Source: Streptomyces sp. AM 4-1-1 (GTDB taxonomy: Bacteria > Actinomycetota > Actinomycetes > Streptomycetales > Streptomycetaceae). Taken from it: a DNA stretch of 64,000 nt. The position numbers were made by a program, and so were the translations under genes. This document shows positions 22,364 through 48,573 of this stretch, in pieces. The stretch covers positions 5,890,001-5,954,000 of the forward strand of contig NZ_CP119145.1 in assembly GCF_029167625.1 (NCBI RefSeq), in the 5' to 3' direction. A model generated the notes under the pieces. It was not told the origin of the DNA, did not search any database, and saw only the letters and a program-made list of their open reading frames with translations. Within the stretch, counting starts at the first letter, position 1. Every line of letters starts with the position of its first letter.

Positions 22364-23164
22364 GTGTTTTTTCGTATTCTGGGTCCGCTCGAAATCGAAG
22401 GACCGAATGGCGAAAAGGTCGGCCCCTGGGCCCCAAAGCTCCGCGCCCTGGTTTCCTATTTATGCTGTCACAACTCGGCCGTCGTCTCCTGTGAGCGGCT
22501 GAGAAACGCCCTCTGGTCGGAAACGCTGCCGGAGAGCGCCACCACGGCCCTTCATGTGTACATCTCCCAACTCCGTGGGAACTTCCGGAGCCTGGGCCTG
22601 GAGCGTTCCGTTCTCGTCACCCAGCCGACCGGCTACCAGCTGCAACTTCCCGACTCCTACCTCGACCTCAACCTCTTCGAGACGCATATGACGCGTTCCC
22701 GGGAGTTGCGGGACCGGGGGGAACTCGAAGAGGCATCTGAATTCCTCAGCGCGGCCATCGGTCTGTGGCGGGGCCCGGCGCTGGACGGATTCCGGGAACT
22801 GCCCGCCTACGAATCCCTCGGACAACTGCTGGACGAGAAGCGGGCACATGCCCATGAACAGCGGCTGCAACTGGAGTTGGAGCTCGGGCGTCACCATGCT
22901 CTCATCGGTGAGCTGTATTCCCTGGTCGCCGCGCATCCCACCTGGGAATCGATCTACGGGTATCTGATGATTTCCCTCTACAGGAGTGGCAGGACGGCGG
23001 ACGCGCTGGGCGCGTTCAATCGAATCCGGCGCACCCTGGTGGAGGACCTCGGCATGGAGCCGGGTCCGAGACTGCAGAAGATCCAACGATCCATCCTCGC
23101 CAGGGACACCTGGCTGGAGAACCCGAGTCCGCAGTATGGAAGCCCTCTGAAGTTCGCCAGCTGA
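22364..23164 (+). CDS. SARP-family pathway regulator with a TTA codon
   Basis: The 266-residue protein is a small SARP (OmpR-like winged helix plus bacterial transcriptional activation domain). The start FFRILGPLEIEGPNG, the recognition region SCERLRNALWSETLPESATTALHVYISQLRG and the BTAD stretch from about residue 100 are typical. The GTG at 22364 was chosen because SARP homology begins right there; the longer upstream frame is rich in Gly/Arg. Codon 33 is TTA (22460-22462), the rare codon read by the bldA tRNA, so its translation should depend on development. It precedes the isonitrile-PKS genes and is the obvious activator of the cluster. Confidence 0.9.
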   Translation: MFFRILGPLEIEGPNGEKVGPWAPKLRALVSYLCCHNSAVVSCERLRNALWSETLPESATTALHVYISQLRGNFRSLGLERSVLVTQPTGYQLQLPDSYLDLNLFETHMTRSRELRDRGELEEASEFLSAAIGLWRGPALDGFRELPAYESLGQLLDEKRAHAHEQRLQLELELGRHHALIGELYSLVAAHPTWESIYGYLMISLYRSGRTADALGAFNRIRRTLVEDLGMEPGPRLQKIQRSILARDTWLENPSPQYGSPLKFAS

Positions 23165-23195
23165 CGTGATAGGGAAGGGCCCAGCCGACCTACAC

Positions 23196-23229
23196 CAACA
23201 GGTGGTCGGACGGCGGCGACCATCTGTTG
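23196..23229. terminator. Hairpin between SARP and KAS III genes
   Basis: CAACAGGTGGTC (23196-23207) pairs with GACCATCTGTTG (23218-23229) with one G-T wobble around a 10-base loop. It lies 32 bases after the SARP stop and 37 before the next start. It could terminate or attenuate SARP transcription, or be an operator. Confidence 0.5.
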
Positions 23230-23265
23230 TCGCCTCGACACACCCCAGCCCAGAAGGACTCACCG

Positions 23266-24204
23266 ATGACTGGATCTCGCATCCTGGCCCTTGGTCACTA
23301 CCAGCCGCAGAAGGTGCTGACCAATGACGATCTCGCACGGGTGACGGACACCAGTGACGAGTGGATTCGCAGCCGGGTCGGAATCCGCACGCGGTGTGTC
23401 GCGGCCGAGGACGAGACGGTGGCAGACATGGCGGCGGAGGCCGCGCAGAAGGCGCTGGCCAACGCGGGTCTGAGCGGCGCGGACATCGACATGGTCATCG
23501 TCGCCACCTGCACCTCGCACGACCGCTCGCCCAACGTCGCGGCGCGGGTCGCCGCCGCACTGGGCATCACCGCTCCCGCCGCCCTCGACGTCAACACCGC
23601 GTGCTCCGGCTTCCCGCACGCCCTCGCCATGGCCGATCTGGCCATCAAGGGCGGCTCCGCGACCAAGGCCGTGGTCATCGGGGTGGAGAAGCTGACGGAC
23701 TTCGTCGACTGGTCCGACCGCAGCACCTGCGTACTCGTGGGCGACGGGGCGGGTGCCGTCGTCGTCGGCGCCACCGACACCCCGGAGATCAGCCCCGTGG
23801 TGTGGGGTTCGGTGCCGCAGATGGGCCGGGCCGTGCTCATCGAGGGCAAGGGCGGCACCTTCTCCCAGGAGGGCCAGTCCGTGTACCGCTGGGCCACGAC
23901 GGCGCTGCCCGAACTGGCGCGGCAGGTGTGCGAACGGGCGGGGATCGCTCCCGAGGACCTGGGCGGTGTCGTCCTGCACCAGGCCAATCTCCGCATCGTC
24001 GAACCCGTCGCCCGCAAGATCGGCGCGGTGAACGCGGTCATCGCCCGGGACGTCGTGGACTCCGGCAACACGTCGGCCGCCAGCATCCCGCTGGCCTTCT
24101 CGAAGCTCGTCGAACGCGGGGAGCTGGAGAAGGGGACCCCCGTCCTGCTCTTCGGCTTCGGCGGCGGCCTCTCGTACGCCGGGCAGATCGTGCGATGCCC
24201 GTGA
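23266..24204 (+). CDS. Beta-ketoacyl-ACP synthase III (KAS III/FabH-like)
   Basis: The 312-residue protein is a complete KAS III with the triad Cys113 (NTACSG), His238 (LHQAN) and Asn268 (SGNTSAAS). The N-terminal SDEWIRSRVGIRTR is diagnostic. FabH-type enzymes join an acyl-CoA or acyl-ACP starter to malonyl-ACP without a PKS KS. In this cluster it could prime the reducing PKS with a short acyl or isocyanoacyl group, or transfer an acyl chain between carriers. It stands apart from the following genes by about 580 bases and may have its own promoter. The ATG follows AGAAGGACTCACCG. Confidence 0.92.
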   Translation: MTGSRILALGHYQPQKVLTNDDLARVTDTSDEWIRSRVGIRTRCVAAEDETVADMAAEAAQKALANAGLSGADIDMVIVATCTSHDRSPNVAARVAAALGITAPAALDVNTACSGFPHALAMADLAIKGGSATKAVVIGVEKLTDFVDWSDRSTCVLVGDGAGAVVVGATDTPEISPVVWGSVPQMGRAVLIEGKGGTFSQEGQSVYRWATTALPELARQVCERAGIAPEDLGGVVLHQANLRIVEPVARKIGAVNAVIARDVVDSGNTSAASIPLAFSKLVERGELEKGTPVLLFGFGGGLSYAGQIVRCP

Positions 24205-25671: not shown

Positions 25672-25771
25672 CCACCGGTCACCCCCGGTCCCGGCCCGGA
25701 GGCGCCGTCCCCGCCGCCCTCCGCCCCGGGGGTCCCACCCCCCCCTGCCTTCCGCCCCAGAAAGGGTCGTC

Positions 25772-26974
25772 ATGACCACTGCGCCGTCCGCGCCGAACCA
25801 CCCGTTCCCGTTCGACGACAAGTTCTTCAAGGACCCCTACCCGACCTATGTCGCCCTGCACGGGACGGGCAGGACGGTGCACCGGATCTCCCTGCCGGAC
25901 GGGAACGAGTCCTGGCTGATCACGGGGTACGAGGAGGCCAGCGAGGCGCTCAAGGACCGCCGCCTGGTGCGCAACCGCCGGCACGCCGGCTCGGACTACC
26001 AGAGCGAGATGCTTCCCGAGATCGTCCGCTCCGGCAACCTCCACATGGAGGACGGGCAGATCCACACCCGGCTGCGCCGCTTCATGAACTGGGCGTTCAC
26101 GCCCAAGCGCGTCGAGGCCCTGGTGCCCCGCATCAAGGAGGTCACCAAGGGGCTGCTCGACGCCATGGAGGCGAACGGCGGCGGTGACATCATGGACGGG
26201 CTCGCGGCCCCCCTCCCCATCGCCATGACGACCGGCATCCTGGGCGTACCCGACGACCAGATCGGCGACTTCCGCTTCTGGAGCGACGAGATGCTGGGCG
26301 GTGAGCCCGCCAGGGCCCGCGCGGGCGCGGAGAAGCTTCTGGAGTACGTACAGCGGCTGATCGACCTCAAGCGCCGCGAGCCGGACGACGACCTCATCTC
26401 CTACTGGGTCTCGGCCACGGACAACGAGGGCAACCCGCTGACCGATCAGGAAATGATCGGCATGACCTTCTTCCTGCTGCTCGGTGGTTACGACACGACG
26501 GTCGGCCAGATAGGCGCCTCCGTGATCGCTCTGATCAACCACCCGGAGAAGGCCGAGCAGATGCGGAACAACCCGGAGATCATCCCCGACGCCGTCGAGG
26601 AGCTGATGCGCTGGGACGGTTCCACCCACAGCGGCATCCGGCGCTTCGCCGCCGAGGACGTGGTGATCGGCGGCGAGAAGATCTCCTCCGGTGACCTGGT
26701 GCTGATCTCGCTCGGCGCCGCCAACCGCTGCCCGATGCGCTTCTCCGAGCCCGACGAGCTGGACTTCGGGCGCGAGGAGAACTTCCAGCTCGGCTTCGGG
26801 CGCGGACCGCACCACTGCCCCGGCAAGGAGCTGGCCCGCCACGAACTGCGCGTCGCCCTGGGCGAACTCGTCCGCCGCTTCCCCGATCTGAGCCTGGCCG
26901 TGCCCGCCGAGGACATCACCTGGCGCCCGTCGTACCTCATCCGGGTCCCGTACAAGCTTCCCGTGCGGTTCTGA
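25772..26974 (+). CDS. Cytochrome P450
   Basis: The 400-residue soluble bacterial P450 has the I-helix oxygen-activation motif LLGGYDTT, the ExxR motif in EELMRW, and the heme loop FGRGPHHCPGKELAR with the ligand Cys349. It needs an external ferredoxin and reductase, neither encoded nearby; the ferredoxin at 63489 belongs to another unit. Its position between the isonitrile synthase and the FcoT-type gene marks it as a tailoring enzyme of this pathway. Known isonitrile fatty acids such as amycomicin carry an epoxide or hydroxyl next to the isonitrile, and this P450 could install such a group. That is inference. Confidence 0.9.
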   Translation: MTTAPSAPNHPFPFDDKFFKDPYPTYVALHGTGRTVHRISLPDGNESWLITGYEEASEALKDRRLVRNRRHAGSDYQSEMLPEIVRSGNLHMEDGQIHTRLRRFMNWAFTPKRVEALVPRIKEVTKGLLDAMEANGGGDIMDGLAAPLPIAMTTGILGVPDDQIGDFRFWSDEMLGGEPARARAGAEKLLEYVQRLIDLKRREPDDDLISYWVSATDNEGNPLTDQEMIGMTFFLLLGGYDTTVGQIGASVIALINHPEKAEQMRNNPEIIPDAVEELMRWDGSTHSGIRRFAAEDVVIGGEKISSGDLVLISLGAANRCPMRFSEPDELDFGREENFQLGFGRGPHHCPGKELARHELRVALGELVRRFPDLSLAVPAEDITWRPSYLIRVPYKLPVRF

Positions 26975-27086
26975 CCCCCGGTCCCCTTCCCCGGCCCCGC
27001 CTCGTCCCGCCCCGTTCCGGACCGGACGGCGCGGGGCCGGAATCCGCTGGAACACGGGGAACTCCCCGCACCGCCCGGAGTGAGAG

Positions 27087-27662
27087 ATGCCGACCTTGAC
27101 CCAACCCGGTACCGGCGCCGTCGGCTTCGGTACCGACGACGCGCTGCTCGCTCAGGTGCTGCGCCCCTACCGCCAGAACTGCCAGTACCTCAAGTCGGCC
27201 GGACTGAAGGTCCTGGACGCGTCCGAGGGGCCCGGACTGGTCACCGCCGACTGCGAGTTCGAGATCCCGGAATCCTGCTACATCGACGACACCGGCCACT
27301 TCAACTCGGTCGAGTTCAACATCTGTTACAACCAGATGCTCTACTACACGGTCGCCAAGGTGGTGCAGGAGCGGCTGGTGGAGCCGCTGTCCGCCTGGAC
27401 CATGGAGGACTACTGGGCGCGCCAGCTGGCGGACTTCCTGATCACGGACTTCCGCAGCAGCTTCAAGCGCGCGATGCGCGGCGGCCGGTTCTCCGGTGAC
27501 ATCACGCTGCTCGACGTCGTGGAGTGGGAGGGCGACGACCTGCGGGAACCGCTCCTCGTCCTGCACACCTCCTGCCGCTACTGGGACGAGAACGGCGGCA
27601 ACTGCCACGGCGACGTCCGAGTCGCCATCACCCACCCGACCACCCACCAGACCCCCTCCTGA
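27087..27662 (+). CDS. ScoD/FcoT-type thioesterase (glycine-adduct forming)
   Basis: The 191-residue hot-dog-fold protein resembles FcoT (Rv0098) and ScoD. The central helix region HFNSVEFNICYNQMLYYTVAKVV and the following MEDYWARQLADFLI and FSGDITLL segments fit that family. In isonitrile lipopeptide pathways this enzyme adds glycine to the beta-carbon of an alpha,beta-unsaturated acyl-ACP and then hydrolyses the thioester, giving the substrate of the ScoE-type oxidase. Its place between the ScoE-type gene and a ScoB-type carrier protein supports that role. The ATG follows GGAGTGAGAG, and seven bases separate its stop from the carrier gene. Confidence 0.82.
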   Translation: MPTLTQPGTGAVGFGTDDALLAQVLRPYRQNCQYLKSAGLKVLDASEGPGLVTADCEFEIPESCYIDDTGHFNSVEFNICYNQMLYYTVAKVVQERLVEPLSAWTMEDYWARQLADFLITDFRSSFKRAMRGGRFSGDITLLDVVEWEGDDLREPLLVLHTSCRYWDENGGNCHGDVRVAITHPTTHQTPS

Positions 27663-27669
27663 GGAACTC

Positions 27670-28068
27670 ATGGCGACGACCACGCCGTTCATCGAGCAAC
27701 TGCGCAAGCTGCCCGGTTCGGAGCGACGGGCCCGGATCGAGGAGCTGGCCCGCACGGAGTTCCGCGCCGCGCTGCTCATGACCGACGACGAGGACATCCC
27801 GCTCGACCAGAACTACTTCGACCTCGGGCTGACCTCGCTGCGCGTCACCGAGACGAAACAGCGGCTCGAAGAGCGGCTCGGCTGTGTCATCGACACCGCA
27901 CTGCTCTTCTCCGCCCCCACCCTGGGCCGGCTCGTGGAACACCTGCACACCGAAGTCCTTCCCGCCCTGCTCGGCGAGGGCACCGCGCCCGGCGGCCCGG
28001 CCTCCGCCGTGCCCGGGACACGCAAGAAGCTCGTCGACGACCTGCTGGCCGACCTCTACAAGGCATGA
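27670..28068 (+). CDS. Stand-alone acyl carrier protein (ScoB type)
   Basis: The 132-residue protein contains one carrier domain with phosphopantetheine serine S56 in YFDLGLTSLRVTE, where Thr replaces the usual Asp of the DSL motif. A C-terminal extension of about 35 residues (TRKKLVDDLLADLYKA) could dock to a partner. In the Sco system ScoB carries the enoyl and isocyanoacyl chains handed over by the ligase ScoC and used by ScoD. The same gene company here (ScoC, ScoD and ScoE types) supports that job. The ATG comes after GAGGAACTC. Confidence 0.88.
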   Translation: MATTTPFIEQLRKLPGSERRARIEELARTEFRAALLMTDDEDIPLDQNYFDLGLTSLRVTETKQRLEERLGCVIDTALLFSAPTLGRLVEHLHTEVLPALLGEGTAPGGPASAVPGTRKKLVDDLLADLYKA

Positions 28069-28138
28069 CGGCACACCCGGCCCGACCATGAACTATTCCG
28101 TGGGGCGCAGCGCGGTCCCCGGAGCGGAGGAAGCGACC

Positions 28139-31100
28139 ATGTCCAACCGGCGCCCGGACGTACAGGACGAGCTGGAGACCGCCCGGCAGGCACTCCAGGA
28201 ACAGCGCCAGGCGCTCGACGAGCTCCTGCTGGAGAAGTACGAGCCGATCGCGATCGTGGGCGTCGGGCTGCGGTTCCCCGGGGACAACTCCACCCCGGAG
28301 GGGTTCGCGGACTTCCTCGAACAAGGCAGGTCGGGCACGGGGCCGATCCCGGCCGACCGCTGGGACGTGGAGGGCTTCTCCTCGGGCGGCGAGGACGTCA
28401 AGGGCAAGATCCGCACCCTCGGCGGCGGATACCTCGGCCAGGTGGACCGCTTCGACCCGCAGTTCTTCAACATCTCACCGAAGGAGGCCCAGTACATCGA
28501 CCCGCAGCAGCGCCTGGCCCTGGAGACGGCCTGGGAGGCGCTGGAGGAGGCCGGGATCGACCCGACCCGGCTGCGCGACGGCAACGGCGGCGTGTACATC
28601 GGCGTCTCCACCGTCGACTACACCATCGAGGCGGACGCGCTGGCGTACGAGGAACTGGACGCGGGCATCGGCACCGGCACGGCCCACTCGGCGGTGCCCG
28701 GCCGGGTCTCGTACTTCCTCGGCTGGCGCGGCCCGAGCATGGCGGTCGACACGGCGTGCTCCGCCTCCCTGGTCACCGTGCACCTGGCGGCCGAGGGGCT
28801 GCGCCGAGGCGAGTGCGACATCGCCCTGGCGGGCGGGGTGAACGTGATCCACCACCCCCGTAACCACATCGTCTTCTCGCAGGCGAACATGCTGTCCGTC
28901 GACGGCGAGTGCAAGACCTTCGACTCCGCCGCCGACGGCTACAGCCGTGGCGAGGGGTGCGGCATGGTCGTCCTCAAGCGGCTCTCGGACGCCAAGCGCG
29001 ACGGCGACCGCGTCCTCGCCCTGGTCCGCGGGTCCGCGGTGCGGCAGGACGGTGAGAGCGGCGGCCTGACCGTCCCCAACGGTTCCGCGCAGGAGATGGT
29101 CATCCGCGCGGCGCTCGCGAGCGCCCTGCTCGAACCGTCCGACATCCAGTACGTGGAGGCGCACGGCACGGGCACCTCCCTGGGCGACCCCATCGAGATG
29201 GGCGCCGTCAACTCGGTGTTCTCCCGGTCGCACACCAGGGAGAACCCGGTCGTCGTCGGCTCCCTGAAGACCAACCTCGGCCACATGGAGGCCGCCGCGG
29301 GCATCGGCGGCGTCATCAAGACGGCCCTCCAGCTCTACCACGGGCGCGTCTATCCCCACCTCAACCTGAAGAAGCCCTCCGAACACATCCCCTGGGACCG
29401 GTACGTCGTGGACGTGCCCGTCACCGGCCGGGAGTGGAGGGCGCCCACGCGGCGCGCGATCGTCAACTCCTTCGGCTTCGCGGGCACCATCGCCTGCACC
29501 GTGCTCGAACAGGCCCCCGCCTTCCGGCCCGCCGAGCCGACGGCCGGTACCGGCAGGCACGTCTTCACGCTGTCCGCCAAGAGCGGGAAGGCCCTGGCCC
29601 TCCAGGCGGAGCGCTACCGAAGCCACCTCGCCGCGCACCCCGAGCAGGACGTGGCCGACATCTGCTTCACGAGCAACGTCGCGCGCGCCCACTTCGGCAG
29701 CCGTCTGTCGGGCGTCGTCCGGGACACCGGCGAACTGCTCGCGCTCCTGGACCGCGCCCCGGCCGCCGACCGCGACCTGCGCAAGGTGGCCCTCCTCTTC
29801 ACCGGACAGGGCTCCCAGTACGCGGGCATGGGCGCATCGCTGTACGACGCGTTCCCCGTCTTCCGCGAACACCTCGACCGGTGCGACGCGTTGTTCGCGG
29901 ACCGGATCGGCCGCTCGGTCAAGGACCTGCTCCTGGGCACCGCCGACGACTCCGGGGAGATCGACCAGACCCGCTTCACGCAGCCCGCGCTGTTCGCCCT
30001 GGAGTACGCCACCGCGCGGCTCTGGCTGAGCTGGGGCGTCGAGCCGAGCGCGCTGATCGGCCACAGTGTCGGGGAGGTCGTCGCCGCGGCGGTCGCCGGA
30101 CTGTTCTCGCTGGAGGACGCGGTGGCGCTGGTCGCCGCGCGCGCCCGCCTCATGCAGTCCGTGACCGCGCCCGGCACCATGCTGGCCGTCCAGGCGGCGG
30201 CCGACGAGGTCGCCTCCCTCGTCGACGCGTACGACGACGTGTCCTTCGGCGCGTTCAACGCGCCCGGACACTGCGTGGTCTCCGGCGGTGCGGCGTCCGT
30301 CGCGGCGCTCGCGGAACTGCTCGCCGAGCGGGGCGTGCGCACCAAACCGCTGCCGGTCTCGCACGCGTTCCACTCGCCGCTGATGGCCGAGGTCTTCGAC
30401 GCCTTCCGCGAGGCGATCGGGGACATCACCTTCCGCGAGCCGCAGATCACGCTCATCTCCAACATCACCGGCCGGGTCGCCGACCTCGCCGAGATCTCCA
30501 CCGCCGACTACTGGGTGCGGCACATCGCGGAGCCCGTCGACTTCCAGGCCGGATTCGCGGCCCTGGCCGAGCGGGGCCGTCACATCTTCATCGAGGTGGG
30601 GCCCTCGTCGACGCTCCTCGGTCTGGGCAAGCGCATCGTGGACCCCAAGGAACACGCCTGGCTGCGCAGTTCGGCGAAGGGCGACACCGACGCCGGGGTG
30701 ATCAAGGGTTCCCTGGCCGAGTACTACGCCGCCGGCCGGACCGTCGACTGGGCGGGCCACCACCGGGGCCGCGGCGGCCGGCGGGTGCCGCTGCCGACGT
30801 ACGCCTTCGACACCAAACGGTACTGGCTGCCCATCGTCGGCGACCGGCACTCCAAGCAGCGCGCGGTCGACCCCGCGCACGCCCACCACCCGCTGCTCGG
30901 CGCCGAGACCACCACGGACGAACAACGCGCCGACGGTGTACGGGAGTTCAGCGCGACGGTGAGCCCCGGACAACCGGCCTACCTGGTCGATCACGTGATC
31001 ATGGGGCAGACGGTCTTCCCCGGTGCGGGCTACGTCGAGATCCTGCTCGCGCTCCAGGACGCGGTCCACGGAGAGAACGACAGGCTCCTGGAGGACCTGA

Positions 31101-34567: not shown

Positions 34568-34571
34568 CCGG

Positions 34572-37645: not shown

Positions 37646-37722
37646 GTCTGCTGCCAGCATGGTTCGCAACGTGTCCCCGATGCCGCGGCCGCCCACCGGC
37701 CCGGCGGAACCCAGGTGGTCCG

Positions 37723-38586
37723 ATGAGTCCGTCCTTCACGACCGTACGGCGGGTCCTGAACGCCGCCTCGTACCTCTCCCCGCGCCTGTTCGGCGGCTAC
37801 GTGTTCCGCCTCTTCTGCGAACCGCAGTCCCGCGACACGGTGCGTGAGGCGCAGCGGCCGGTGCACGATCAGGCCGTGGTCGAGGAGCTGACGACCGACG
37901 GCCGCCGCCTGGTCACCTACCGCTGGGGCGACGGCGAACGCCCGGTCGTGCTCCTGCACGGGTTCGGCGGCCGGGCGGCCAACTTCGCCGGTTTCGTCCA
38001 CGCGCTGAACCGGAGCGGTATCAGCGCCGTGTCGTACGACGCCTACGGCCACGGTGACTCCGGCGGCAGGAACGTCACGGTCCTCGACCATCTCGCGGTC
38101 CTGCGGGAACTCCAGGAACGGCACGGCCCGTTCCGGGCGATCATCGGGCACTCGTTCGGCGGCACCAGCGCCTATCTGGCCCTGCGCCGCGGGATCAAGG
38201 CGGACCGGCTGGTCTCCATCGCGTCGGAGGGCGACTTCGGCGCACTGCCGGGCCTGTTCTGCCACCAGCTCGGCCTGCGGCAGTCGTACGCGGGTGAACT
38301 GCGCCGCCGCTCCGAGGAACTCTTCGCGGCGGAACCGGACTTCTGGCACGAGTTCTCCCCCGTGCACCGGCCCGAGGAGATCTCCCAGCCGCTGCTCGTG
38401 GTGCACGACAAGAAGGACCGGGAGGTCGGCGTGGCACAGGGCCGCGCCATCGCCGAGGCGTACGGCGACCGGGCCAGGCTGCTGGAGACGGACGGCCTCG
38501 GACACCGGCGGATTCTCGGCGACCCCGCGGTGATCACGCACGTGCTGACCTTCGTCGCGGGCGGGGACACCACGCCCATCGCCTGA
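37723..38586 (+). CDS. Alpha/beta hydrolase (possible type II or offloading thioesterase)
   Basis: The 287-residue protein has a canonical alpha/beta hydrolase core: oxyanion loop LLHGFGG, nucleophile elbow GHSFGG, acid in HDKKDREV and His in GLGHRRIL. The N-terminal 40 residues (SYLSPRLFGGYVFRLFCEP) are hydrophobic and basic, as in membrane-associated esterases. No PKS here ends in a thioesterase domain, so this enzyme may release the finished chain or edit stalled acyl-ACPs. GHSFGG differs from the GHSMGG of classical type II thioesterases, so the assignment is tentative. Confidence 0.8.
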   Translation: MSPSFTTVRRVLNAASYLSPRLFGGYVFRLFCEPQSRDTVREAQRPVHDQAVVEELTTDGRRLVTYRWGDGERPVVLLHGFGGRAANFAGFVHALNRSGISAVSYDAYGHGDSGGRNVTVLDHLAVLRELQERHGPFRAIIGHSFGGTSAYLALRRGIKADRLVSIASEGDFGALPGLFCHQLGLRQSYAGELRRRSEELFAAEPDFWHEFSPVHRPEEISQPLLVVHDKKDREVGVAQGRAIAEAYGDRARLLETDGLGHRRILGDPAVITHVLTFVAGGDTTPIA

Positions 38587-38651
38587 GAGCTGTTCCGGGA
38601 GCGGCACCGGGGCGCGGCGGCTACGACCCGTAACCAACCTAAGTGAGAGCG

Positions 38652-41600
38652 ATGACCAGCCAGTCTGTACGCACCGGAAGCGATGTACGCGGTTCCCTGG
38701 GCGAGCCGGTCGCCGTCGTGGGCATGGCCTGCCGGCTGCCGGAGGCGTCGGGCCCGAGCGGCTTCTGGCAGATGCTCCGTGAGGGACGGCACGGCATCAC
38801 CGACGTACCGGCCGGCCGGTGGGACCCCGCCGACGGGTCCGCCGATCCCGGCGCGGTGCCCCGGGACACCGTCGGCCGGGGCGGCTTCATCGCGGGAGTC
38901 GGCGACTTCGACGCGGGCTTCTTCGGGATCTCGCCGCACGAGGCCGCGTCGATGGACCCGCAGCAGCGGCTCGTGCTGGAACTGGGATGGGAGGCGCTGG
39001 AGGACGCGGGCATCCCCGCCGACACCGTGGCCGGTGCCCCCGCCGGGGTGTTCCTGGGCGCCATCGCGGGCGACTACGACGCGCTGTTGAGCGGGTACGG
39101 GGCCCGGGGAGTCACCCGGCACTCCTTCACGGGGTTGCAGCGGGGCATGATCGCCAACCGCGTCTCGCACCTGTTCGGCTTCCGCGGCCCCAGCCTCACC
39201 GTCGACTGCGGCCAGTCGTCCTCACTCGTCTCGGTCCACCTGGCCTGCGAGAGCATCCGCTCGGGGGAGTCCTCCTTCGCCGTCGCGGGCGGCGTCCACC
39301 TCAACCTGGTACCCGGATCGGCCGCGCGCGCGGACGCGTTCGGCGTCCTCTCGCCCGACGGGCGCTGCTACACGTTCGACGCGCGCGCCAACGGATTCGT
39401 CCGGGGGGAAGGCGGCGCGGTCGTCGTCCTCAAGCCGCTCTCCCGAGCGCTGGCGGACGGTGACGACATCGTCTGCCTGGTGCTGGGCAGCGCGGTCAAC
39501 AACGACGGTCACGGCGAGGCCGTCGGCGTCCCCAGCCCACGGGCGCAGAGCGCGGTCGTCCGCACGGCCCTGCGCCGGGCGGGGGTGGCCGCCGCCGACG
39601 TCCAGTACGTCGAACTGCACGGCACGGGCACCGCCCGCGGCGACGAACTGGAGGCCCGCGGGCTCGGCTCGGTGTTCGCGGCGGCCCGTCCGCCCGGCGC
39701 GCCCCTGCTCGTGGGGTCGGCCAAGACCAACGTGGGCCACCTCGAAGGCGCGGCGGGCGCCGTCGGCCTGCTGAAGGCGGCCCTCAGCATCGCGCACGCC
39801 GAACTCCCCGCGAGCCTCAACTTCGAGTCCCCCGGCCCCCGGCTGCCCCTCGCCGAGCTGGCCCTGGAGGTCCGGCGGCGGCACGGCGCCTGGCCGCGCC
39901 CGGCGCAGCCGCTGCTGGCGGGCGTCAGCTCCTTCGGCGTCGGGGGCACCAACTGCCACGTCGTACTGGGCCCGGCGCCCCGCCCCGCCACCGTGCCGGA
40001 CGCCCCGGCACCCGGTACGGCACCACCGGTCCTGGCCTGGCCGCTGCACGCCAGGAGCCGCCAGGCACTCGCCGCCCAGGCGCGCGCGCTCAGCGACCAC
40101 CTGGCCGCTCACCCCGGCCTCGGCCCCGCCGACGTCGGCCTGTCCCTCGCGACGACCCGCACGGCGCTGGAGCACCGCGCCGTCGCGGTCGCCCGGGACC
40201 GCGACGGCCTCACCAGGGCACTGGACGGGCTCGCCGCCGGTGAGCTGCCCACCGGCACGGCCCGCGGCGTCGCACGCGGCCCGGCCAAGGTGGCCTTCGT
40301 CTTCCCCGGCCAGGGCTCGCAGTGGACCGGCATGGCCCGCGGCCTGCTGGAGCGCTCCGAGGTGTTCCGCGACGAACTCGCCGCCTGCGGGCGGGCGTTG
40401 GCGCCGTACGTCGACTGGGACCCGGCCGAGGTCCTGCGCGGCGACACCGGCCTCGACGACGTGGAGGTCGTCCAGCCGCTGCTGTTCGCCGTCATGGTCT
40501 CGCTGGCGGCGCTGTGGCGCTCCCACGGGGTGGAACCCGACGCCGTGGTGGGGCACTCCCAGGGTGAGCTGGCCGCCGCGTACGTCTGCGGGGCGCTGAC
40601 CCTGGAGGAGGCCGCCCGCGCCGTCGCCCTGCGCAGCCGGGCCATCGGCCGGATCGCGGGGACGGGCGGACTGCTGTCGGTGGCGCTGCCCGCCGACCGC
40701 GTCGTGCCCTACCTGGAGCACTCGCCGCACGAACTGTCCGTGGCGGTGGTCAACAGCCCGCGCTCGACCGCCGTCGGAGGCACCCCCGAGGCGCTGGCCG
40801 CCCTCGCCGGTGACCTGGAGCGCGACTCCGTACGCACCCGCCGCATCCTCATCGACTACGCCTCCCACTCGGCGCAGGTCGAGGCCGTCCGCGAGGAGGT
40901 CCTGGACGCGCTGGCGGACATCGCCCCCCGCTCCTCGGACATTCCGTTCTACTCCAGCACCGACGGCGGACTCCTGGACACCGCGCGCCTCGACTGCGCG
41001 TACTGGTACCGCAACCTGCGGGAGACCGTGCGGTTCGAGCGGGCGACGCGGGCCCTGCTGGAGACGGGCCACACCGTGCTCATCGAGATCAGCCCCCATC
41101 CCGTGCTCGTGGCCGGGGCGCTGGACACCATCGAGGACGCGGTCGCGGACGGCGTCGTCGGCGCGGGTGACGCCACCGCCGTCGCCACCCTGCAACGCGG
41201 TGAATCGGGCACCGGCCGCTTCCTGGAGGCCGTCGCGGCGGCCTACGTGCGGGGCGTGCCCGTCGACTGGGCACGTCTCCACGCCGGAACGGGGGCCCGC
41301 CGGGTCAAGCTGCCCGGCTATGCATTCCAGCGGCGCCGGCACTGGATCGAGGCGCCGCTCGCGCGGGCCGGGGACGCCGAGAGCGAGCGTCCCCGGCCCG
41401 CCGCCGCGGAACGCCCGGAGACCGTCCGGCCGGACCGACGCGGCGGCGGGGCGAGGGAGTTGACCGGAGCCGTCGGGACCAGGGAGCCGGCCGGGCCCGC
41501 CGGGCAGGCGGACACCCTCGACCTCGTCCGGCGGCACGTCGCGCGCGTGCTCGGGCACGACGACCCGTCGGCCGTCGACGTCCGCATGTCCTTCCAGGGC

Positions 41601-44600
41601 CTCGGCTTCGACTCGCTGGGCGCGGTCCAGCTCAGGGAACGGCTCAGCGAGGCCACCGGAATCCCGCTGCCGGCCGGACTGGTCTTCGACCACCCGACCC
41701 CGGCCGCGCTCGCCCACCGGCTGACCCGGCTGTCCTCCCGCGCGCCGGACGCCCCGGACTCCTGGGGCGCCGGGGCCGCACCCGCCACTTTTGCCGACGA
41801 CGACCCGATCGCCGTCGTCGGCATGGCCTGCCGCTACCCCGGCGGCGTCGAGTCACCGGAGGACCTGTGGCGCCTGGTGACCGGCGGCCGGGACGCCGTC
41901 CGCGGGTTCCCGGCCGACCGGGGCTGGGACATCGAGGGCCTCTACCACCCCGACCCCGGCCACCGGGGGACCACGTACACGCGCAGCGGTGGATTCCTGG
42001 ACGGAGCGGCCCTGTTCGACCCCGCGTTCTTCGGGATCAGCCCCCGCGAGGCGCTGGCCATGGACCCGCAGCAGCGGATACTGCTGGAGACCGGCTGGGA
42101 GGTCTTCGAGCGGGCGGGCATCGTGCCGGGGGCCGTCGACCGGACGCGTACGGGTGTCTTCGTCGGCGCCATGCCGAGCGGCTACGGTCCGCGGCTGGAC
42201 GAACCGGCGGGCGGCCTGGAGGGGTACGTCCTGACCGGTTCGTCGCCGAGCGTGCTCTCCGGGCGGCTCGCCTACACCTTCGGGTTCGGCGGCCCGGCCG
42301 TGACCATCGACACGGCCTGCTCCTCCTCGCTGGTCGCCCTCCACCTCGCGGCGCGCTCCCTGCGGAGCGGCGAGTGCTCGCTGGCGCTCGCGGGCGGCGT
42401 CAGCGTCATGGCGGGTCCCGGCATGTTCGTGGAGTTCAGCCGCCAGCGCGGGCTGTCCGCCGACGGCAGGTGCAAGCCGTTCTCCGCGCGGGCCGACGGC
42501 ACGGGCTGGGGCGAGGGCGCCGGTGTCCTGCTGCTGGAACGGCTCTCGGACGCCCGCAGGCACGGGCACCCGGTGCTCGCGCTGGTGCGCGGCTCCGCGG
42601 TCAACCAGGACGGCGCGAGCAACGGGCTCACCGCGCCGAACGGACCGGCGCAGGAACGGGTGATCCGCGACGCCCTGGCCTCCGCGGGGCTGCGCCCCGG
42701 AGACGTCGACGCGGTGGAGGCGCACGGCACCGGCACGGTGCTCGGCGACCCGATCGAGGCGGGCGCGCTGCTGGCCGTCCACGGCCCCGGCCGGGACGCG
42801 GAACGGCCGCTGTGGCTCGGCTCCCTCAAGTCGCACACGGGCCACACCCAGGCGGCGGCCGGGGTGGGCGGGGTGATCAAGATGGTGATGGCCATGCGGC
42901 ACGGGCTGCTGCCGCGCTCGCTGCACGCCGACACCCCCTCGCCGCACGTCGACTGGTCGGCCGGAGCCGTACGGCTGCTGAGCGAGGACGTCCCCTGGGA
43001 GGGCGGGACGGGCGCCCCCCGCAGGGCCGGAGTCTCGTCCTTCGGCATCAGCGGCACCAACGCCCACGTGGTGATCGAGGAGGCCCCGGCGTCGGCCCAG
43101 GAGCCCCGGGCGACCCGGCCGGGGAGCACCCGGCTGGTCCCGCTGCCGCTCACCGCCGGGAGCGCCGCCGCGCTCGGCGCGCAGGCCGAGCGGCTGCGCG
43201 CCCACGCGGCGTCGACCGATGCGGACGTGGCCGACCTCGGCCACAGCCTGGCCACCACCCGCACCGCCTTCGACCACCGGGGCGTGGTGCTGGCCCGCGA
43301 TCCGGCGGAACTCGCGGACGGACTGCGGGCACTGGCCACCGGCGCCCCCGCCGACAACGTGACACGCGGTACGGCGACGGCGGGCCGCCTGGCGTTCCTG
43401 TTCGCCGGACAGGGGAGCCAGCGCCCCGGGATGGGGCGCGAACTGTACGCCGCCCACCCGGCCTTCGCCCGAGCGCTGGACGCCGTCTGCGACACGCTGG
43501 ACCGGCACCTCGAACGCCCGCTGCGCGACGTGATGTTCGCGGAACCCGGGACCGAGGGCGCGGCCCTGCTGGACCGTACGGAGTGGACCCAGCCCGCGCT
43601 GTTCGCCTTCGAGGTCGCCCTGTACCGGCTCGTCGAGCGCTGGGGCCTGGTTCCCGACCTCCTGCTGGGACACTCGGTCGGCGAACTGGCCGCCGCGCAC
43701 GTGGCGGGCGTGCTCTCACCGGCCGACGCCGCCCTGCTGGTCACGGCCAGGGCCCGGCTGATGGGCGAACTCCCTTCCGGCGGAGCCATGGTGGCGCTGG
43801 AGGCGACCGAACGCGAGGCGGCCGACTGGCTCGCGGAGCACGGCGCCGCCGCGGACATCGCCGCGGTCAACGGGCCCCGCGCGGTCGTCGTCGCCGGGGA
43901 CGAGAGCTGGGCGGTCCGGCTCCTGGACGAGTGGCGCGAACGCGGGCGCCGGGCCAGCCGCCTGACGGTGAGTCATGCATTCCACTCGGCGCGGATGGAG
44001 CCGATGCTGGCCGAGTTCGCCCGGGTCGCCGGAACCCTCGACTACCGCCCGCCGGTCATCCCCGTCGTCTCCGACGTCACCGGGCGGCCGGTCGACGCGA
44101 CGACACTCTGCTCCGCCGACCACTGGGTCCGGCACGCGCGCAGCGCCGTGCGCTTCGGCGACGGCGTACGGGCGTTGACGGCGGCCGGAGTCACCCGCTT
44201 CCTCGAACTGGGGCCCGACGCGGTCCTGGCCCCGATGGTGCGGCGCGATCTGCCGGACAACCCCCGCTCGGTGGTGGCCGCCGCCGCCCGCCGGGGCCGC
44301 CCCGCCGAACAGAGCCTTCTGACTGCCCTCGCCGAGCTGTACGCGCACGGCGCCGACGTCGACTGGGCGGCGACCCTGGCGGGTACCGGCGCGCGCACCG
44401 TCGACCTGCCGACGTACGCGTACCAGCGGGAGCGGTACTGGCTCCCGCCGGCAGCGCGCGGTACCGGCGACCTGTCGCGCGCCGGACTCGACCCCGCCCG
44501 GCACCCGCTGCTCGGCGCGGCCGTCGAACTCCCGGCCACCGACGGCGTCGTCCACACCGGCGAGCTGTCCCTCGCCGCCCACCCCTGGCTCGCGGACCAC

Positions 44601-47069
44601 CGGGTGCTGGGCGCCACGGTGGTGCCGGGCGCAGTCATCGCCGACTGGGCCGTCCACGCGGCACGCGAGTCGGGCTGCGGGCGCGTCGGGGAACTCGTAC
44701 TCGAAGCGCCACTGGTCCTGGAGGAGGACACCGGCACACAGGTCCGGGTGAGCGTCGCAGGCCCGGGAACCGACGGGCGGCGCGAGTTCACGCTGCACGC
44801 CCGCCCCCGGGAGGCCGCGGGCGGGGAGTGGACCCGGCACGCCACCGGCCGGCTGGAGCCCGCCGATAGCGCGGCGGCCACGAGCGACGCCGAACCGGCG
44901 AGCTGGCCGCCGCACGGAGCCGAGCCGGTGGACATCGCCGGGGCCTACGACGGGCTCGCCGACCGGGGACTCGGCTACGGAGCGGCCTTCCGGGCGCTGC
45001 GCGCCCTGTGGGTGCGCGGCGACGACGTCTTCGCGGAGGTCGAACTCCCCGACGGGAGCGCGGAACAGCGCACCGGGCACGAGATCCACCCCGTACTGCT
45101 CGACGCCGCGCTGCACGCCGTGCTGGTGGCGAGGCCGCAGGACGGCCCCACGCTTCCCTTCGTCTGGCGGGGCGTCATGGCGCACGCGGCGCCCGTGGGA
45201 CGCCTCAGGGCGCGGGTGAGCACGGTGGGGCGGCGGACCAGGGCGGGAGAACTCACCGTCGCGGTCGTCCTCGCGGACGCCACGGGCACCGTCGTCGCGT
45301 CCGTCGACTCCCTGCTCCTGAGGCGGACCACGCCCGCCCACCTGGACGCCGCGCTCGGCGCCCGCCGAGGCGCGCTGCACCGGCTCACCTGGCCGGCCGC
45401 CCCCGTCACGGAGACCGGCCGGACACCGGGCCCGTGGACGGTCCTGGGCAGCGACAGCCTGGGCCTGACCGGCGTGTTCAAGGGCGCGGGCGTCCGCGTG
45501 GACATCCGCGCCGACCTGCTCGCCCTCGACAGCCTCGTCGGCTCCCGTACCCCGCTGCCGGAAGCCGTCGTGGTCTCCTGCGTGGGAGAGCGCGACAGCG
45601 CCGGCGAGTCGCTGATCCCGGCGAGCCGCCGGGCCCTCAGGCTCGTCCAGGAATGGGTGGGCGACGACCGCCTCGCGTCGACCCCGCTGGTGTTCGTCAC
45701 CTCGGGCGCGGTCGCCGTCCACGAGGGCGACGAGGTGTCCGATCCGGCGGGCGCCGCCGTGTGGGGCCTGGTCCGCAGCGCCCAGACGGAGCACCCCGGC
45801 CGCTTCGTGCTCGTCGACGTCGAACCGGGAGCGGAGGGCCTGCCGCGAGCGGTCCTGTCCGGCGAACCGCAGAGCGCGGTCCGGGCCGGCGTCGTGCACC
45901 GGCCCCGGCTGGCGGCCGTCCGCCGCGCGCGCACCTCCCCGGCCGGCGCCCCCTGGGCACCCGGCGGTACCGTCCTCATCACCGGCGGCACCGGTGCGCT
46001 CGGCGGGCTGCTCGCCCGGCACCTGGTCGAGCGGCACGGGGTGCGCGACCTGGCGCTGATGAGCCGCAGGGGCCCGGCGGCCCCCGGCGCGGCCGGACTC
46101 GCCCGGGAGCTGACCGCGCTCGGGGCACGGGTCACGCTCCTGGCGTGCGACGCCGCCGACCGGGGTGCCCTGACGGAAGCCCTCGCCCGGGTGCGCGCCG
46201 GGGGCACGCTGGGCGCCGTCGTGCACGCGGCGGGAGTGCTCGACGACGGTACGGTCGCCGGGCTGACGCCGAAGCGGCTGGAGCGCGTGCTGCGCGCCAA
46301 GAGCACGGCCGCCTGGAACCTGCACGAGCTGACGGCCGACGACGGCCTGACGGCGTTCGTCCTCTTCTCCTCGGTCATCGGCATCCTCGGCGGGGCGGGG
46401 CAGGCCAACTACGCGGCGGCGAACACCTTCCTGGACGGCCTCGCGCACCACCGCCGGGCGCTCGGACTCCCCGCGGTCTCGCTGGCCTGGGGCCTGTGGG
46501 GCGAGGGCGCGGGCCTCGCGGCGGCGCTGACGGAGGCGGACGTCGCCAGAATGGCGCGATCCGGGCTCGCCCCGCTGTCCCCGAGACGAGGTGTCGAGCT
46601 GTTCGACGCGGCGCTCGCCGCCGACGAGGCCGTGCTCGTGCCCGCCGCGCTCGACGGCGCCGCCCTGCGCCGCCGTTCGGCGGACCTCGCCCCGGTCCTG
46701 GCTGACCTGGCCCCTCGCGGGCGGGCCGGCGAGGGAGACGGCGGAACAACGGTCGCGCGTACCCTCCGGGACCGGCTCGCCCTGCTCGAAAACGACGAAC
46801 GGCCCTCCGCGCTACTGGAGTTCACCCGTGACCAGATCGCGACGGTGATGGGATACGCGGACGCCGGCGCCGTCGATCCGGACGCCGAGATCTGGAATCT
46901 TGGCCTCGACTCACTCACCGCCCTGGAACTCACCGGCCGTCTGACGGCCGCCACCGGTCTACGGCTGCCCACCACGCTCACCTTCGACCATCCCTCCGCG
47001 CGGGAGATGGCGCGCCACCTCGGCGACGCGCTCGACCACGGGAGCGGACCGACGCCGCCCGGACAGTGA
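38652..47069 (+). CDS. Type I PKS, loading plus one module: KSQ-AT-ACP-KS-AT-DH-KR-ACP
   Basis: The 2805-residue protein opens with a KSQ: the active-site Cys is Q188 (VDCGQSSS), the mark of a decarboxylating loading module. AT1 has GHSQGE (S636) and YASH (736-739), predicting methylmalonyl-CoA, so a propionyl starter. ACP1 Ser988 is in GFDSLGAV. The extension module has an active KS (Cys1223, [15 protein letters not shown]) and AT2 with S1675 and HAFH (malonyl). Its DH has H1983 ([10 protein letters not shown]) and LLDAALH. The KR has TGGTGALG (about 2444), an LDD motif (B-type) and NYAAAN. ACP2 Ser2754 is in LGLDSLTAL. There is no ER or TE. Predicted product: trans-2-pentenoyl-ACP. The ATG at 38652 is preferred over a GTG at 38643. 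Confidence 0.93.
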
Positions 47070-47103
47070 GACCCCCACGGCCGACCAACGGGAGACAGCG
47101 ACA

Positions 47104-48573
47104 ATGAGCCAGACTTCGGGACCGGACGCGAGACCGGCCTCATCCGGACAGAACCGAATCCTGGCCGGGCTGGTGCTGGGCATGCTCGCCTTCACGGTGG
47201 TGCAGACATCGGTGGTGCCGATCCTGCCCTCGCTCGCCGCCGCGGTCCACGTGTCGGGCAGCACCGTGGCGTGGCTGATGACCGCCAACCTGCTGGCGGC
47301 GGCGGTGCTCACACCGCTGCTCGGCCGCTTCGGCGACCTCTACGGCCACAAGCCGATGCTGCTGGTCTCCCTCGGCGGCCTGGCACTCGGCTCGGTGCTC
47401 GCGGTGAGCACCGATTCGTTCGCGCTGCTCGTCGTCGCACGGGTCCTCCAGGGCGCGGGCGGTGGTGTGGTGCCGCTGGCGATCAGCGTGGTGCGCACCC
47501 GGTTCCCGGCGCCGAGGATTCCCTCGGGCATCGCGGCCATCAGCGCGTCGATGGGCATCGGCAGCGCGCTCGGCCTGGTCGTCACGGGCCTGCTGATGGA
47601 GCACTGGAGCTACACCTCGGTCTTCTGGGCCGGACTCGTCTTCAGCGTCGCGGCGATCGTGGTGACCGTGGTGGGCGTGCCCCGCTCCACGCGGACCGAT
47701 CCGGTGGGCAAGGCCGATCCCCTCGGCGCCCTGACCCTCGCGGGCTGGCTGTGCTCCTTCCTGATCGCGGTCAGCGAGGGCAACGAGTGGGGCTGGACGT
47801 CCGGCAGGGTCGTCGGCCTCTTCGCGGTCGCGGCCGTGCTCGGCGCCTGCTGGGTCGTCGTCGAGCTGAGGGTGCCGTATCCGCTGGTGAGCATCCGCAT
47901 GCTGGTCAATCCCGTGGTCGCCTTCACGAACCTGTCCGGCGCCCTCTTCGGATTCGGCATGTACGGCTGCTTCCTGGTCATCAGCAACTTCGCCCAGACA
48001 CCCGAGAAGTTCGCGCACTACGGTTTCGGCGCCAGCGTGCTGGGCGCCGGGGTGATGCTGCTCCCCTCGGCCGTGGGCAGCATGGTCGCCGCGCCCGTCG
48101 GGGCGAGGATGATCGCCGGCCGCGGCCCGAGGGGCCCACTCGTGCTCGGCGGTCTGCTCTCCGCGGTGGCCATGGGCTTCCTGGCGGTGGCGAACGGGCA
48201 CCCCGCCGACCTCTACATCGCCTCCGCGACCTTCGGATTCGGGCTGGGGCTCGCCTACACGGCCATGCCGGCGGCCATCAACTCGGCGGTCCCGGCCGCT
48301 CAGAGCGGGATCGCCAACGGAATGAACGCCGTGTTCCGCACCGTCGGCGGCGCGGTGGGCACCGCGGCGCTGGGCGCGACCCTGGCGGGCGACACCATCG
48401 AGCAGCTGGGCCTCCCCACCCTGGGCGCCTACCGGCAGGCGTTCTGGATCACGGCGTTCTGCTGCCTCGTCGCCGCGGCGGCACCGCTGGCCTTCCGTGT
48501 CCGCCGGGACGCGCGGGACACGCCCCGCGAACAGCTCCCGCACAGCGACCCGGCCGGCGAAACGGTCTCCTGA
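47104..48573 (+). CDS. MFS drug exporter (EmrB/QacA type)
   Basis: The 489-residue protein has about fourteen hydrophobic helices. Signature loops are GRFGDLYGHKPML (motif A, helices 2-3) and RVLQGAGGGVVPLAISVVR (motif B, helix 4); motif C is recognisable in SMGIGSALG. It is 34 bases downstream of the bimodular PKS and is the last gene of the forward run, so it most likely exports the cluster product or gives self-resistance. A hairpin at 48595-48620 may end the operon. Confidence 0.88.
   Translation: MSQTSGPDARPASSGQNRILAGLVLGMLAFTVVQTSVVPILPSLAAAVHVSGSTVAWLMTANLLAAAVLTPLLGRFGDLYGHKPMLLVSLGGLALGSVLAVSTDSFALLVVARVLQGAGGGVVPLAISVVRTRFPAPRIPSGIAAISASMGIGSALGLVVTGLLMEHWSYTSVFWAGLVFSVAAIVVTVVGVPRSTRTDPVGKADPLGALTLAGWLCSFLIAVSEGNEWGWTSGRVVGLFAVAAVLGACWVVVELRVPYPLVSIRMLVNPVVAFTNLSGALFGFGMYGCFLVISNFAQTPEKFAHYGFGASVLGAGVMLLPSAVGSMVAAPVGARMIAGRGPRGPLVLGGLLSAVAMGFLAVANGHPADLYIASATFGFGLGLAYTAMPAAINSAVPAAQSGIANGMNAVFRTVGGAVGTAALGATLAGDTIEQLGLPTLGAYRQAFWITAFCCLVAAAAPLAFRVRRDARDTPREQLPHSDPAGETVS

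What the first reader, a model, noticed from the sequence alone, without database searches (positions are those of the whole stretch)
22364..48573. A polyketide assembly line coupled to an isonitrile-forming Sco cassette, with no NRPS
Seen: ScoE-, ScoD-, ScoB- and ScoC-type genes lie in one nearly contiguous run with a KAS III, a P450, two type I PKSs, a lone KS and an exporter. Known: in Streptomyces (Sco) and Mycobacterium (Rv0096-0101) this cassette makes 3-isocyanoacyl units for an NRPS that caps a diamine-type core. Inferred: here the acceptor is a PKS, so the product should be an isonitrile polyketide or fatty acid, conceptually near amycomicin or aerocyanidin but with a dedicated PKS-made chain. 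This is the best candidate for an undescribed system in the window.
Basis: partly seen in the sequence, partly recalled or inferred. Interest (0 to 1): 0.9.

Follow-up and report, generated by a model that had tools for sequence, protein, structure and literature searches.

The report
Isonitrile polyketide cluster, amycomicin family
A Streptomyces gene cluster that probably makes an isonitrile-bearing fatty-acid-like antibiotic related to amycomicin, with one extra polyketide enzyme, an unusual non-condensing synthase and a spare copy of the enzyme that amycomicin attacks.

Summary
Window 22283-48573 holds a tight + strand run: SARP regulator, KAS III, ScoE, P450, ScoD/FcoT, ACP, a full PKS module (PKS1), a lone KS, AMP ligase, alpha/beta hydrolase, PKS2 and MFS exporter, with no NRPS. 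All twelve genes recur in S. capoamus, eleven (not the MFS) in S. virginiae and NRRL F-2664.

The interpretation needs correcting. An isonitrile cassette with a type I PKS and no NRPS is the amycomicin kind. The lone KS and P450 have 56-57% relatives in, by name or contig length, amycomicin producer Amycolatopsis AA4, and in a Streptomyces reported with that cluster. A published table gives the PKS of a Micromonospora amycomicin-like cluster as KS-ATm-DH-ER-KR-ACP, as PKS1 here. The PKSs probably build the enoyl chain that ScoD attacks, not only accept the isonitrile.

Extra here: PKS2, a KSQ propionyl-loading module plus one enoyl-forming module. The lone KS keeps Cys but lacks both catalytic His, under purifying selection. 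The KAS III is a duplicate FabH, a candidate self-resistance gene. The S. virginiae 'amycomicin' cluster is probably this variant.

Verdict: new variant of a known kind.

The parts
22283..23164 (+). SARP-type regulator
   Evidence: BTAD PF03704 145 bits, Trans_reg_C; 66% in S. capoamus, 52% in S. virginiae and G189
23266..24204 (+). KAS III / FabH copy; candidate self-resistance gene
   Evidence: TIGR00747 over cut-off; ACSG, HQAN and GNTSAAS active-site motifs; 87/78/77% in three sister clusters; paralogues of 72% (standalone) and 44% (fab operon) elsewhere in the genome
24757..25671 (+). ScoE-type Fe/alpha-KG oxidase/decarboxylase that makes the isonitrile
   Evidence: NF049937 over cut-off; 14 of 14 metal, CABA, H-bond-network and alpha-KG positions of ScoE retained (11 of these residues from passages of PMC7949033; the 3 metal-ligand numbers recalled and agreeing in register)
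25772..26974 (+). Cytochrome P450, predicted to oxidise the ACP-bound isonitrile acyl chain
   Evidence: PF00067; 83% in S. capoamus; 56-57% relatives include one named from Amycolatopsis sp. AA4; lies between ScoE and FcoT in the 7 KS0-bearing Streptomyces clusters; in Glycomyces it lies further downstream
27087..27662 (+). FcoT/ScoD-type bifunctional thioesterase: adds glycine to enoyl-ACP and hydrolyses
   Evidence: PF10862; nearest PDB 5wsx/5wsy, which I recall as SAV606; ScoD equivalog 212 bits, under its cut-off of 250
27670..28068 (+). Discrete acyl carrier protein (ScoB-like role)
   Evidence: PF00550; 72/57/57% in sister clusters
28139..34567 (+). PKS1: KS-AT(malonyl)-DH-ER-KR-ACP, stand-alone fully reducing module
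   Evidence: Domains by Pfam, same set by Pfam in S. virginiae and G189; GHSVG/HAFH AT; the best full-length PDB match is mycocerosic acid synthase
34572..36026 (+). Lone KS0: active-site Cys kept, both His replaced (EAQANGS, KANLGY)
   Evidence: dN/dS 0.255 against S. capoamus
36074..37645 (+). Acyl-ACP/CoA ligase (ScoC-like): reactivates the free isonitrile acid
   Evidence: PF00501 and PF13193; 57-65% to the ligases of the NRPS-type isonitrile loci
37723..38586 (+). Alpha/beta hydrolase, probable release or editing enzyme
   Evidence: PF12697; present at 42-74% in the 7 other KS0-bearing clusters examined
38652..47069 (+). PKS2: KSQ-AT(methylmalonyl)-ACP / KS-AT(malonyl)-DH-KR-ACP, predicted to give 2-pentenoyl-ACP
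   Evidence: Domains; Cys-to-Gln in the first KS, GHSQG/YASH then GHSVG/HAFH ATs; 69/58/57% in three sister clusters, whose extension modules also have DH and KR
47104..48573 (+). MFS exporter
   Evidence: PF07690; 73% in S. capoamus, only a 31% match in S. virginiae

Best explanation
The run is a biosynthetic gene cluster of the amycomicin family that makes a beta-isocyano (probably epoxidised) fatty-acid-like polyketide, with its own FabH copy for immunity. Proposed order: (1) PKS2 loads methylmalonyl, its KSQ decarboxylates it to propionyl, and one malonyl extension with KR and DH gives 2-pentenoyl-ACP. (2) PKS1, a mycocerosic-acid-synthase-like module, extends this or its own starter, perhaps iteratively, to an enoyl chain. 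(3) The ScoD-type thioesterase adds glycine across the enoyl thioester and releases an N-carboxymethyl-3-amino acid. (4) ScoE converts it to the 3-isocyano acid. (5) The AMP ligase reloads it onto the discrete ACP. (6) The P450 oxidises it there. (7) The lone KS0, unable to condense, transfers the acyl chain, the hydrolase releases it and the MFS protein exports it. (8) The extra FabH replaces the inhibited target. Shown here: gene content, domain order, active-site residues, conservation and kinship to genes of amycomicin-type strains. Steps 3-4 follow from established chemistry of the families. Steps 1-2, 5-8 and the product are inferred.
For: ScoE equivalog over cut-off with 14 of 14 functional positions kept. 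KS0 relative P0053 (57%, EAQANGV and KANLGY) and P450s P0132 (57%) and P0152 (56%) have a longest contig of the same length, 8,800,179 bases, and P0152 is named Amycolatopsis sp. AA4, the amycomicin producer in a review table. Streptomyces sp. JH14, listed with a 100% amycomicin cluster (passages of PMC10037901), has a KS0 (56%) and a P450 (56%). A table of PMC9967187 lists the predicted amycomicin PKS as KS ATm DH ER KR ACP. KSQ and AT motifs. Cluster edges by comparison. FabH: 188 of 199 genomes have a match better than 1e-100, beyond the fab-operon type (9.1e-75 in this genome), and the four with a copy of 77% or more are the window, S. virginiae (in the cluster) and G039 and G198, where FabH and a thioesterase gene stand without ScoE. 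FabH as amycomicin target: passages of PMC13273461.
Against: The Micromonospora table lists one PKS protein and no lone KS for its amycomicin-like cluster. FcoT is under the ScoD equivalog cut-off. No PKS2 was found in the 32-60 kb held around the Glycomyces, G135, G113 and G189 clusters, so it is not part of the core. Docking, iteration number and the P450 step were not tested. The FabH could instead prime a chain; the gain or loss order at the two orphan loci is unknown.
Confidence: 0.68

Rival explanations
1. One reading: a short 3-isocyano acid (from pentenoyl or crotonyl) is the starter unit, and PKS1 then extends it, giving an isonitrile polyketide with the isonitrile far from the carboxyl end.
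For: The ligase and discrete ACP would hand an activated isonitrile acid to PKS1, the gene right after the ACP. In cremimycin a CmiS1-type product becomes a PKS starter (passage of PMC11284099). PKS2 would then supply the short enoyl chain.
Against: PKS1 is kept in clusters where no PKS2 was found, so there the short enoyl chain would need another source. In amycomicin, as cited in PMC13273461, P450s act in forming the isonitrile-bearing end, which a P450 beside ScoE here fits.
Confidence: 0.22
2. The cluster-linked KAS III is a biosynthetic priming enzyme, not a resistance copy.
For: It keeps the active-site motifs, and a KAS III-like gene of another clade lies beside ScoE in most NRPS-type loci.
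Against: PKS2 has its own loading module. The window KAS III groups with FabH copies found across the genus, not with the three KAS III of NRPS-type loci put in the tree (100/100 split). FabH and a thioesterase persist in two genomes without the cluster.
Confidence: 0.35
3. Beta-amino-acid (cremimycin-like) starter biosynthesis rather than an isonitrile.
For: FcoT/CmiS1-type enzyme plus PKS and ligase, as in cremimycin (passage of PMC11284099).
Against: A ScoE equivalog over cut-off takes the place of the FAD enzyme CmiS2. No FAD oxidase family is among the Pfam matches of the run.
Confidence: 0.03
4. The isonitrile unit is used by an NRPS elsewhere in the genome (diisonitrile lipopeptide), and the PKSs are unrelated neighbours.
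For: The genome has 30 condensation-domain matches, the nearest about 37 kb upstream of ScoE. One distant ScoE locus, G343, has PKS1-like and NRPS-like genes together (typed by similarity only).
Against: The four loci with ScoE and PKS1 show no match to the INLP-type NRPS in the up to 10 kb held on each side. PKS1 moves with the cassette at 53-77% identity.
Confidence: 0.03

Closest known systems
Amycomicin biosynthesis (Amycolatopsis sp. AA4)
   Same: ScoE-type oxidase, bifunctional thioesterase, ligase, ACP and P450 logic (pathway recalled, and in part as cited in PMC13273461). KS0 and P450 relatives at 56-57%. Single KS-ATm-DH-ER-KR-ACP PKS in a Micromonospora relative.
   Different: Adds the KSQ-loaded PKS2 and a linked FabH copy of the Streptomyces type, as far as can be told without the amc cluster itself. 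One P450 gene in the window, while three P450s are cited for amycomicin.
S. virginiae cluster described in print as amycomicin (PMC13273461)
   Different: No MFS ortholog, P450 only 49%. THA-960 itself was not examined.
Sco/INLP isonitrile lipopeptide clusters
   Same: ScoE (63-69%), FcoT (44-54%) and AMP ligase (57-65%).
   Different: They carry a C-A-PCP-reductase NRPS and gave no hit at E 1e-10 to PKS1, KS0, PKS2 or the P450, apart from one 36% P450 in L074. Their KAS III is of another clade (3 put in the tree).
Cremimycin beta-amino starter pathway
   Same: PKS-made enoyl chain attacked by a CmiS1-type thioesterase (passage of PMC11284099).
   Different: ScoE in place of the FAD-dependent CmiS2, so an isonitrile is expected rather than an amine.
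Non-condensing ketosynthases (KS0)
   Same: Active-site Cys without the catalytic His pair.
   Different: A stand-alone protein of a family with Tyr in place of the second His (116 of 120). KS0 of trans-AT PKSs are recalled, not compared here.

Membership tests
ScoE (isonitrile-forming oxidase/decarboxylase) | Score over the curated equivalog cut-off | tested here: met
   NF049937 505 bits, cut-off 400
ScoE (isonitrile-forming oxidase/decarboxylase) | Metal, CABA and alpha-KG binding residues | tested here: met
   14 of 14 positions; 11 residues from PMC7949033 passages, 3 metal ligands recalled
ScoD enoyl-ACP glycyltransferase | Score over the curated equivalog cut-off | tested here: not met
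   NF049938 212 bits, cut-off 250; the FcoT family is met. It may work like ScoD but is not filed as the equivalog
Sco/INLP lipopeptide cluster | NRPS (C-A-PCP-R) next to the cassette | tested here: not met
   No NRPS in the run; nearest condensation domain about 37 kb from ScoE
Amycomicin-family cluster | Stand-alone KS-AT(malonyl)-DH-ER-KR-ACP PKS with the isonitrile cassette | tested here: met
   compared with the table passage in PMC9967187
Amycomicin-family cluster | KS0 and P450 relatives in an amycomicin producer | tested here: met
   P0053, P0132, P0152; AA4 assignment by the name of P0152 and equal contig length; co-location in the amc cluster not shown
Amycomicin-family cluster | Gene-by-gene match to the AA4 amc cluster | not testable with these tools
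   Papers not held; AA4 DNA not reached
Amycomicin-family cluster | Epoxy isonitrile product | not testable with these tools
   Needs isolation and NMR
KSQ loading module | Active-site Cys replaced by Gln, both His kept | tested here: met
   DCGQSS, ELHGTGT, KTNVGH
Condensing ketosynthase (lone KS) | Cys-His-His triad | tested here: not met
   C, Q, Y at the three positions
Target-duplication self-resistance (FabH) | Extra copy of the target, active-site motifs intact, beside the cluster | tested here: met
Target-duplication self-resistance (FabH) | Copy confers tolerance to the product | not testable with these tools
   Bench test needed

The most novel reading that the evidence does not exclude
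The cluster makes a new isonitrile antibiotic class: a KSQ-primed, PKS-built beta-isocyano acid, handed between carrier proteins by a stand-alone ketosynthase that has lost condensation and become an acyl transferase, and protected by a dedicated FabH copy that also survives as an orphan immunity gene in non-producers. The S. virginiae compound assigned in print as amycomicin would then be this different molecule.
Probability: 0.3. Interest if true: 0.72.

Novelty: new variant of a known kind. Interest (0 to 1): 0.52.

Why it matters
Amycomicin inhibits S. aureus at an MIC of 30 nM by hitting FabH (as told in passages of PMC13273461). A relative with a KSQ starter module would be a route to analogues. 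The KS0 family (none of the 120 listed homologs has both catalytic His) is a ketosynthase group whose reaction I did not find described, though I made no literature search aimed at it. The linked FabH gives a testable self-resistance gene and a way to find further clusters. The comparison also questions the amycomicin assignment of the S. virginiae cluster.

Tried and rejected
A cremimycin-like beta-amino starter was considered and rejected, because ScoE passes its equivalog cut-off and no FAD oxidase family was matched in the run. Use by a distant NRPS was considered and rejected: the nearest condensation domain lies in another locus that has only generic matches in the sister regions. KAS III as the INLP-type enzyme was rejected: the tree puts it with FabH. 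Decay of KS0 was rejected: dN/dS is 0.255 (S. capoamus) and 0.333 (S. virginiae), against 0.291 and 0.431 for PKS1. Tree caution: the six cluster-type FabH copies are not resolved as one clade. Seven positions are fixed in them and absent from 27 standalone copies, which alone says nothing about resistance.

Led nowhere: the protein search with PKS2 residues 1-1000 was swamped by generic modular PKSs (3069 of 3086 scored candidates passed) and cannot say whether AA4 has a PKS2. The P450 PDB search gave only other P450s. The domain scan missed many DH domains because single-sequence queries were used; Pfam finds the DH in window PKS1 and PKS2 and in the S. virginiae and F-2664 PKS2 and the S. 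virginiae and G189 PKS1. Literature searches (open-licence PMC library, listings only apart from the papers named) showed no description of this cluster with PKS2, but subscription papers are not covered. The amycomicin pathway paper (Zheng 2024) and discovery paper (Pishchany 2018) were seen only as references and citing passages.
Full report
Observation. The window is bases 5890001-5954000 of contig 1 of a 7.47 Mb genome. The genus is Streptomyces: same-genus G042 has a contig of the same length, with ScoE at the same place, as S. virginiae ISP-5094. Codon-position GC and Pfam give one + strand run from 22283 to 48573: SARP regulator, KAS III, TauD/ScoE, P450, FcoT, ACP, PKS1, lone KS, AMP ligase, alpha/beta hydrolase, PKS2, MFS. 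All twelve have counterparts at 66-87% in S. capoamus, and eleven (not the MFS) at 49-78% in S. virginiae and NRRL F-2664. The other genes picked in the window and its 20 kb flanks have only matches of 40% or less, to common domain types, in the S. capoamus, S. virginiae and F-2664 stretches (72-80 kb each). The cluster therefore ends at the SARP and at the MFS.

Isonitrile cassette. ScoE passes the curated ScoE equivalog cut-off (505 against 400 bits). It keeps 14 of 14 positions checked: Tyr96, Tyr97, Tyr101, Arg157, Lys193, Arg195, Asp198, Arg201, Glu209, His299 and Arg310 from passages of PMC7949033, plus the metal ligands His132, Asp134 and His295, whose numbers are recalled. FcoT matches its Pfam family and is nearest to PDB 5wsx/5wsy, which I recall as SAV606, the dual-function thioesterase described in a passage of PMC11284099. 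It falls short of the ScoD equivalog cut-off (212 against 250), so it is called ScoD-like.

NRPS or PKS. A scan of GTDB-220 contigs with this ScoE gave 54 loci. 47 carry a relative of the NRPS of L082, 4 carry PKS1 (S. capoamus, S. virginiae, NRRL F-2664, Glycomyces paridis) and 3 are cut by contig ends. The L082 NRPS is C-A-PCP-reductase. In 392 Streptomyces genomes, 32 have ScoE at E 1e-60, with 37 genes in all. I fetched wider surroundings of 14 of the 37 (window included). In 11 a PKS1 relative of at least 51% lies beside ScoE, and in 5 of those (window, S. virginiae, G135, G113, G189) the lone KS follows it. The other 3 were a PKS1-like 1311-aa protein with NRPS-like genes (G343), a modular PKS (G222) and a 7770-aa ORF that I did not type (G348). 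The remaining 23 were not typed this way.

Kinship to amycomicin. Protein searches found relatives of the lone KS (P0053, 57%) and of the P450 (P0132, 57%; P0152, 56%), each with a longest contig of 8,800,179 bases. P0152 is named Amycolatopsis sp. AA4, which a review table lists as amycomicin producer; the other two are named MULTISPECIES [Actinomycetes]. Streptomyces sp. JH14, listed in PMC10037901 with amycomicin at 100% (passages), has both too, at 56%. PMC9967187 lists the predicted amycomicin PKS of a Micromonospora as one KS-ATm-DH-ER-KR-ACP protein (passages). This is the order of PKS1 here; no lone KS is listed with it. The family is thus known, and PKS plus isonitrile without NRPS is not new in itself. 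I could not read the amc cluster: both primary papers are not held.

What is added. PKS2 begins with a KS whose Cys is Gln while both His remain (DCGQSS, ELHGTGT, KTNVGH). It is followed by an AT with GHSQG/YASH motifs and an ACP, then KS-AT(GHSVG/HAFH)-DH-KR-ACP. By the usual reading of these motifs (recalled) it makes propionyl and then 2-pentenoyl-ACP. The three sister clusters have the same design. G105 has it over two overlapping ORFs, and G353 has a KSQ with a malonyl-type AT in a longer protein. Around the Glycomyces, G135, G113 and G189 clusters (32-60 kb held) the PKS2 query hits only PKS1, KS0 and, in G189, some KS-like proteins. KSQ modules start chains, so PKS2 is more likely to supply the enoyl chain than to accept the isonitrile. 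PKS1 has mycocerosic acid synthase as its best full-length structural relative, which makes iterative use plausible but does not show it.

Lone KS. Its Cys204 is kept, but the two catalytic His positions are Gln339 and Tyr379. Among the 120 listed homologs (132 passed the limit) none has both His. The second is Tyr in 116 and His in 4, the first is Gln in 97 and His in 23, and the Cys is Ser in 47. dN/dS against S. capoamus is 0.255, close to PKS1 at 0.291. This is a maintained protein that should not condense. Acyl transfer between carriers is my inference.

KAS III. The genome has three FabH-like genes over 40%: the cluster copy, a standalone one (72%) and one in a row with AT-, ACP- and KS-type genes as in the fab operon (44%, E 9.1e-75). 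In 199 Streptomyces genomes 195 have a match at E 1e-60; in 7 of these the best match lies between 2.6e-62 and 4.6e-78, the range of the fab-operon type, so 188 have a closer copy (counted). The non-cluster copies listed are 68-74% identical. Copies of 77% or more occur in 4 of 199: the window, S. virginiae in the cluster, and G039 and G198, which have no ScoE match. In those two the FabH and a neighbouring gene are kept without PKS genes in the 40 kb held. In G039 that gene is a thioesterase by Pfam; the pair is 84-86% identical in DNA to that of F-2664 in both. In G039 it lies within about 8 kb of sequence collinear with F-2664's right flank. Since amycomicin targets FabH (passages of PMC13273461), a resistance role is the simplest reading, with a priming role as rival.

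Consequence for print. PMC13273461 describes an amycomicin cluster conserved in S. virginiae strains, with only accurate-mass evidence for the compound (passages and section 9). The only ScoE match in the S. virginiae ISP-5094 genome is in a sister of the present cluster, with PKS2. THA-960 was not examined, so this is a prediction: its product may be a PKS2-primed relative.

Verdict. Observation confirmed, interpretation partly supported, new variant of the amycomicin kind.

Noticed in passing
L193:18838-20549 (G039) and G198:C1:3636389-3638100: FabH copy (77-79%) with a thioesterase gene kept without any ScoE/PKS cluster: possible orphan immunity genes (thioesterase by Pfam for G039 only).
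   Followed up: partly
KS0 homologs P0001-P0120: 47 of 120 homologs of the lone KS have Ser in place of the nucleophilic Cys; 58 of 120 are longer proteins of at least 560 aa.
   Followed up: partly
P0056 (Micromonospora humidisoli, locus tag TPA0907_47670): A KS0 homolog with Ser for Cys whose tag is next to _47680, listed in PMC9967187 as an orphan KS-ATm-DH-ER-KR-ACP PKS: the PKS1-KS0 pair may be wider than amycomicin clusters.
   Followed up: no
G000:C1:5863499-5880533 (window about -26.5 to -9.5 kb): A separate PKS/NRPS locus upstream of the window; its condensation match is read through one in-frame TGA.
   Followed up: no
57573-63200: Run of PhyH-like oxygenase, DUF6271 (795 bits), PLP decarboxylase and MFS transporter on the + strand: looks like a small uncharacterised pathway.
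   Followed up: no
10529-13281: Adjacent sulfatase and sulfatase-modifying (FGE-like) genes; ordinary.
   Followed up: no
S. capoamus G392:C18:171139-173848 and 146979-148190: S. capoamus has two P450s between ScoE and FcoT (83% and 45% to the window one) and a third beside its KAS III. The 83% one is split between two frames in this assembly, while a 400-aa S. capoamus protein at 83% exists (P0122).
   Followed up: no
L081 and L114-L115 (Glycomyces paridis): A smaller core cluster with ScoE, FcoT, ACP, PKS1, KS0, ligase, hydrolase, a KAS III that groups with the INLP type, and a P450 further downstream, without PKS2.
   Followed up: partly
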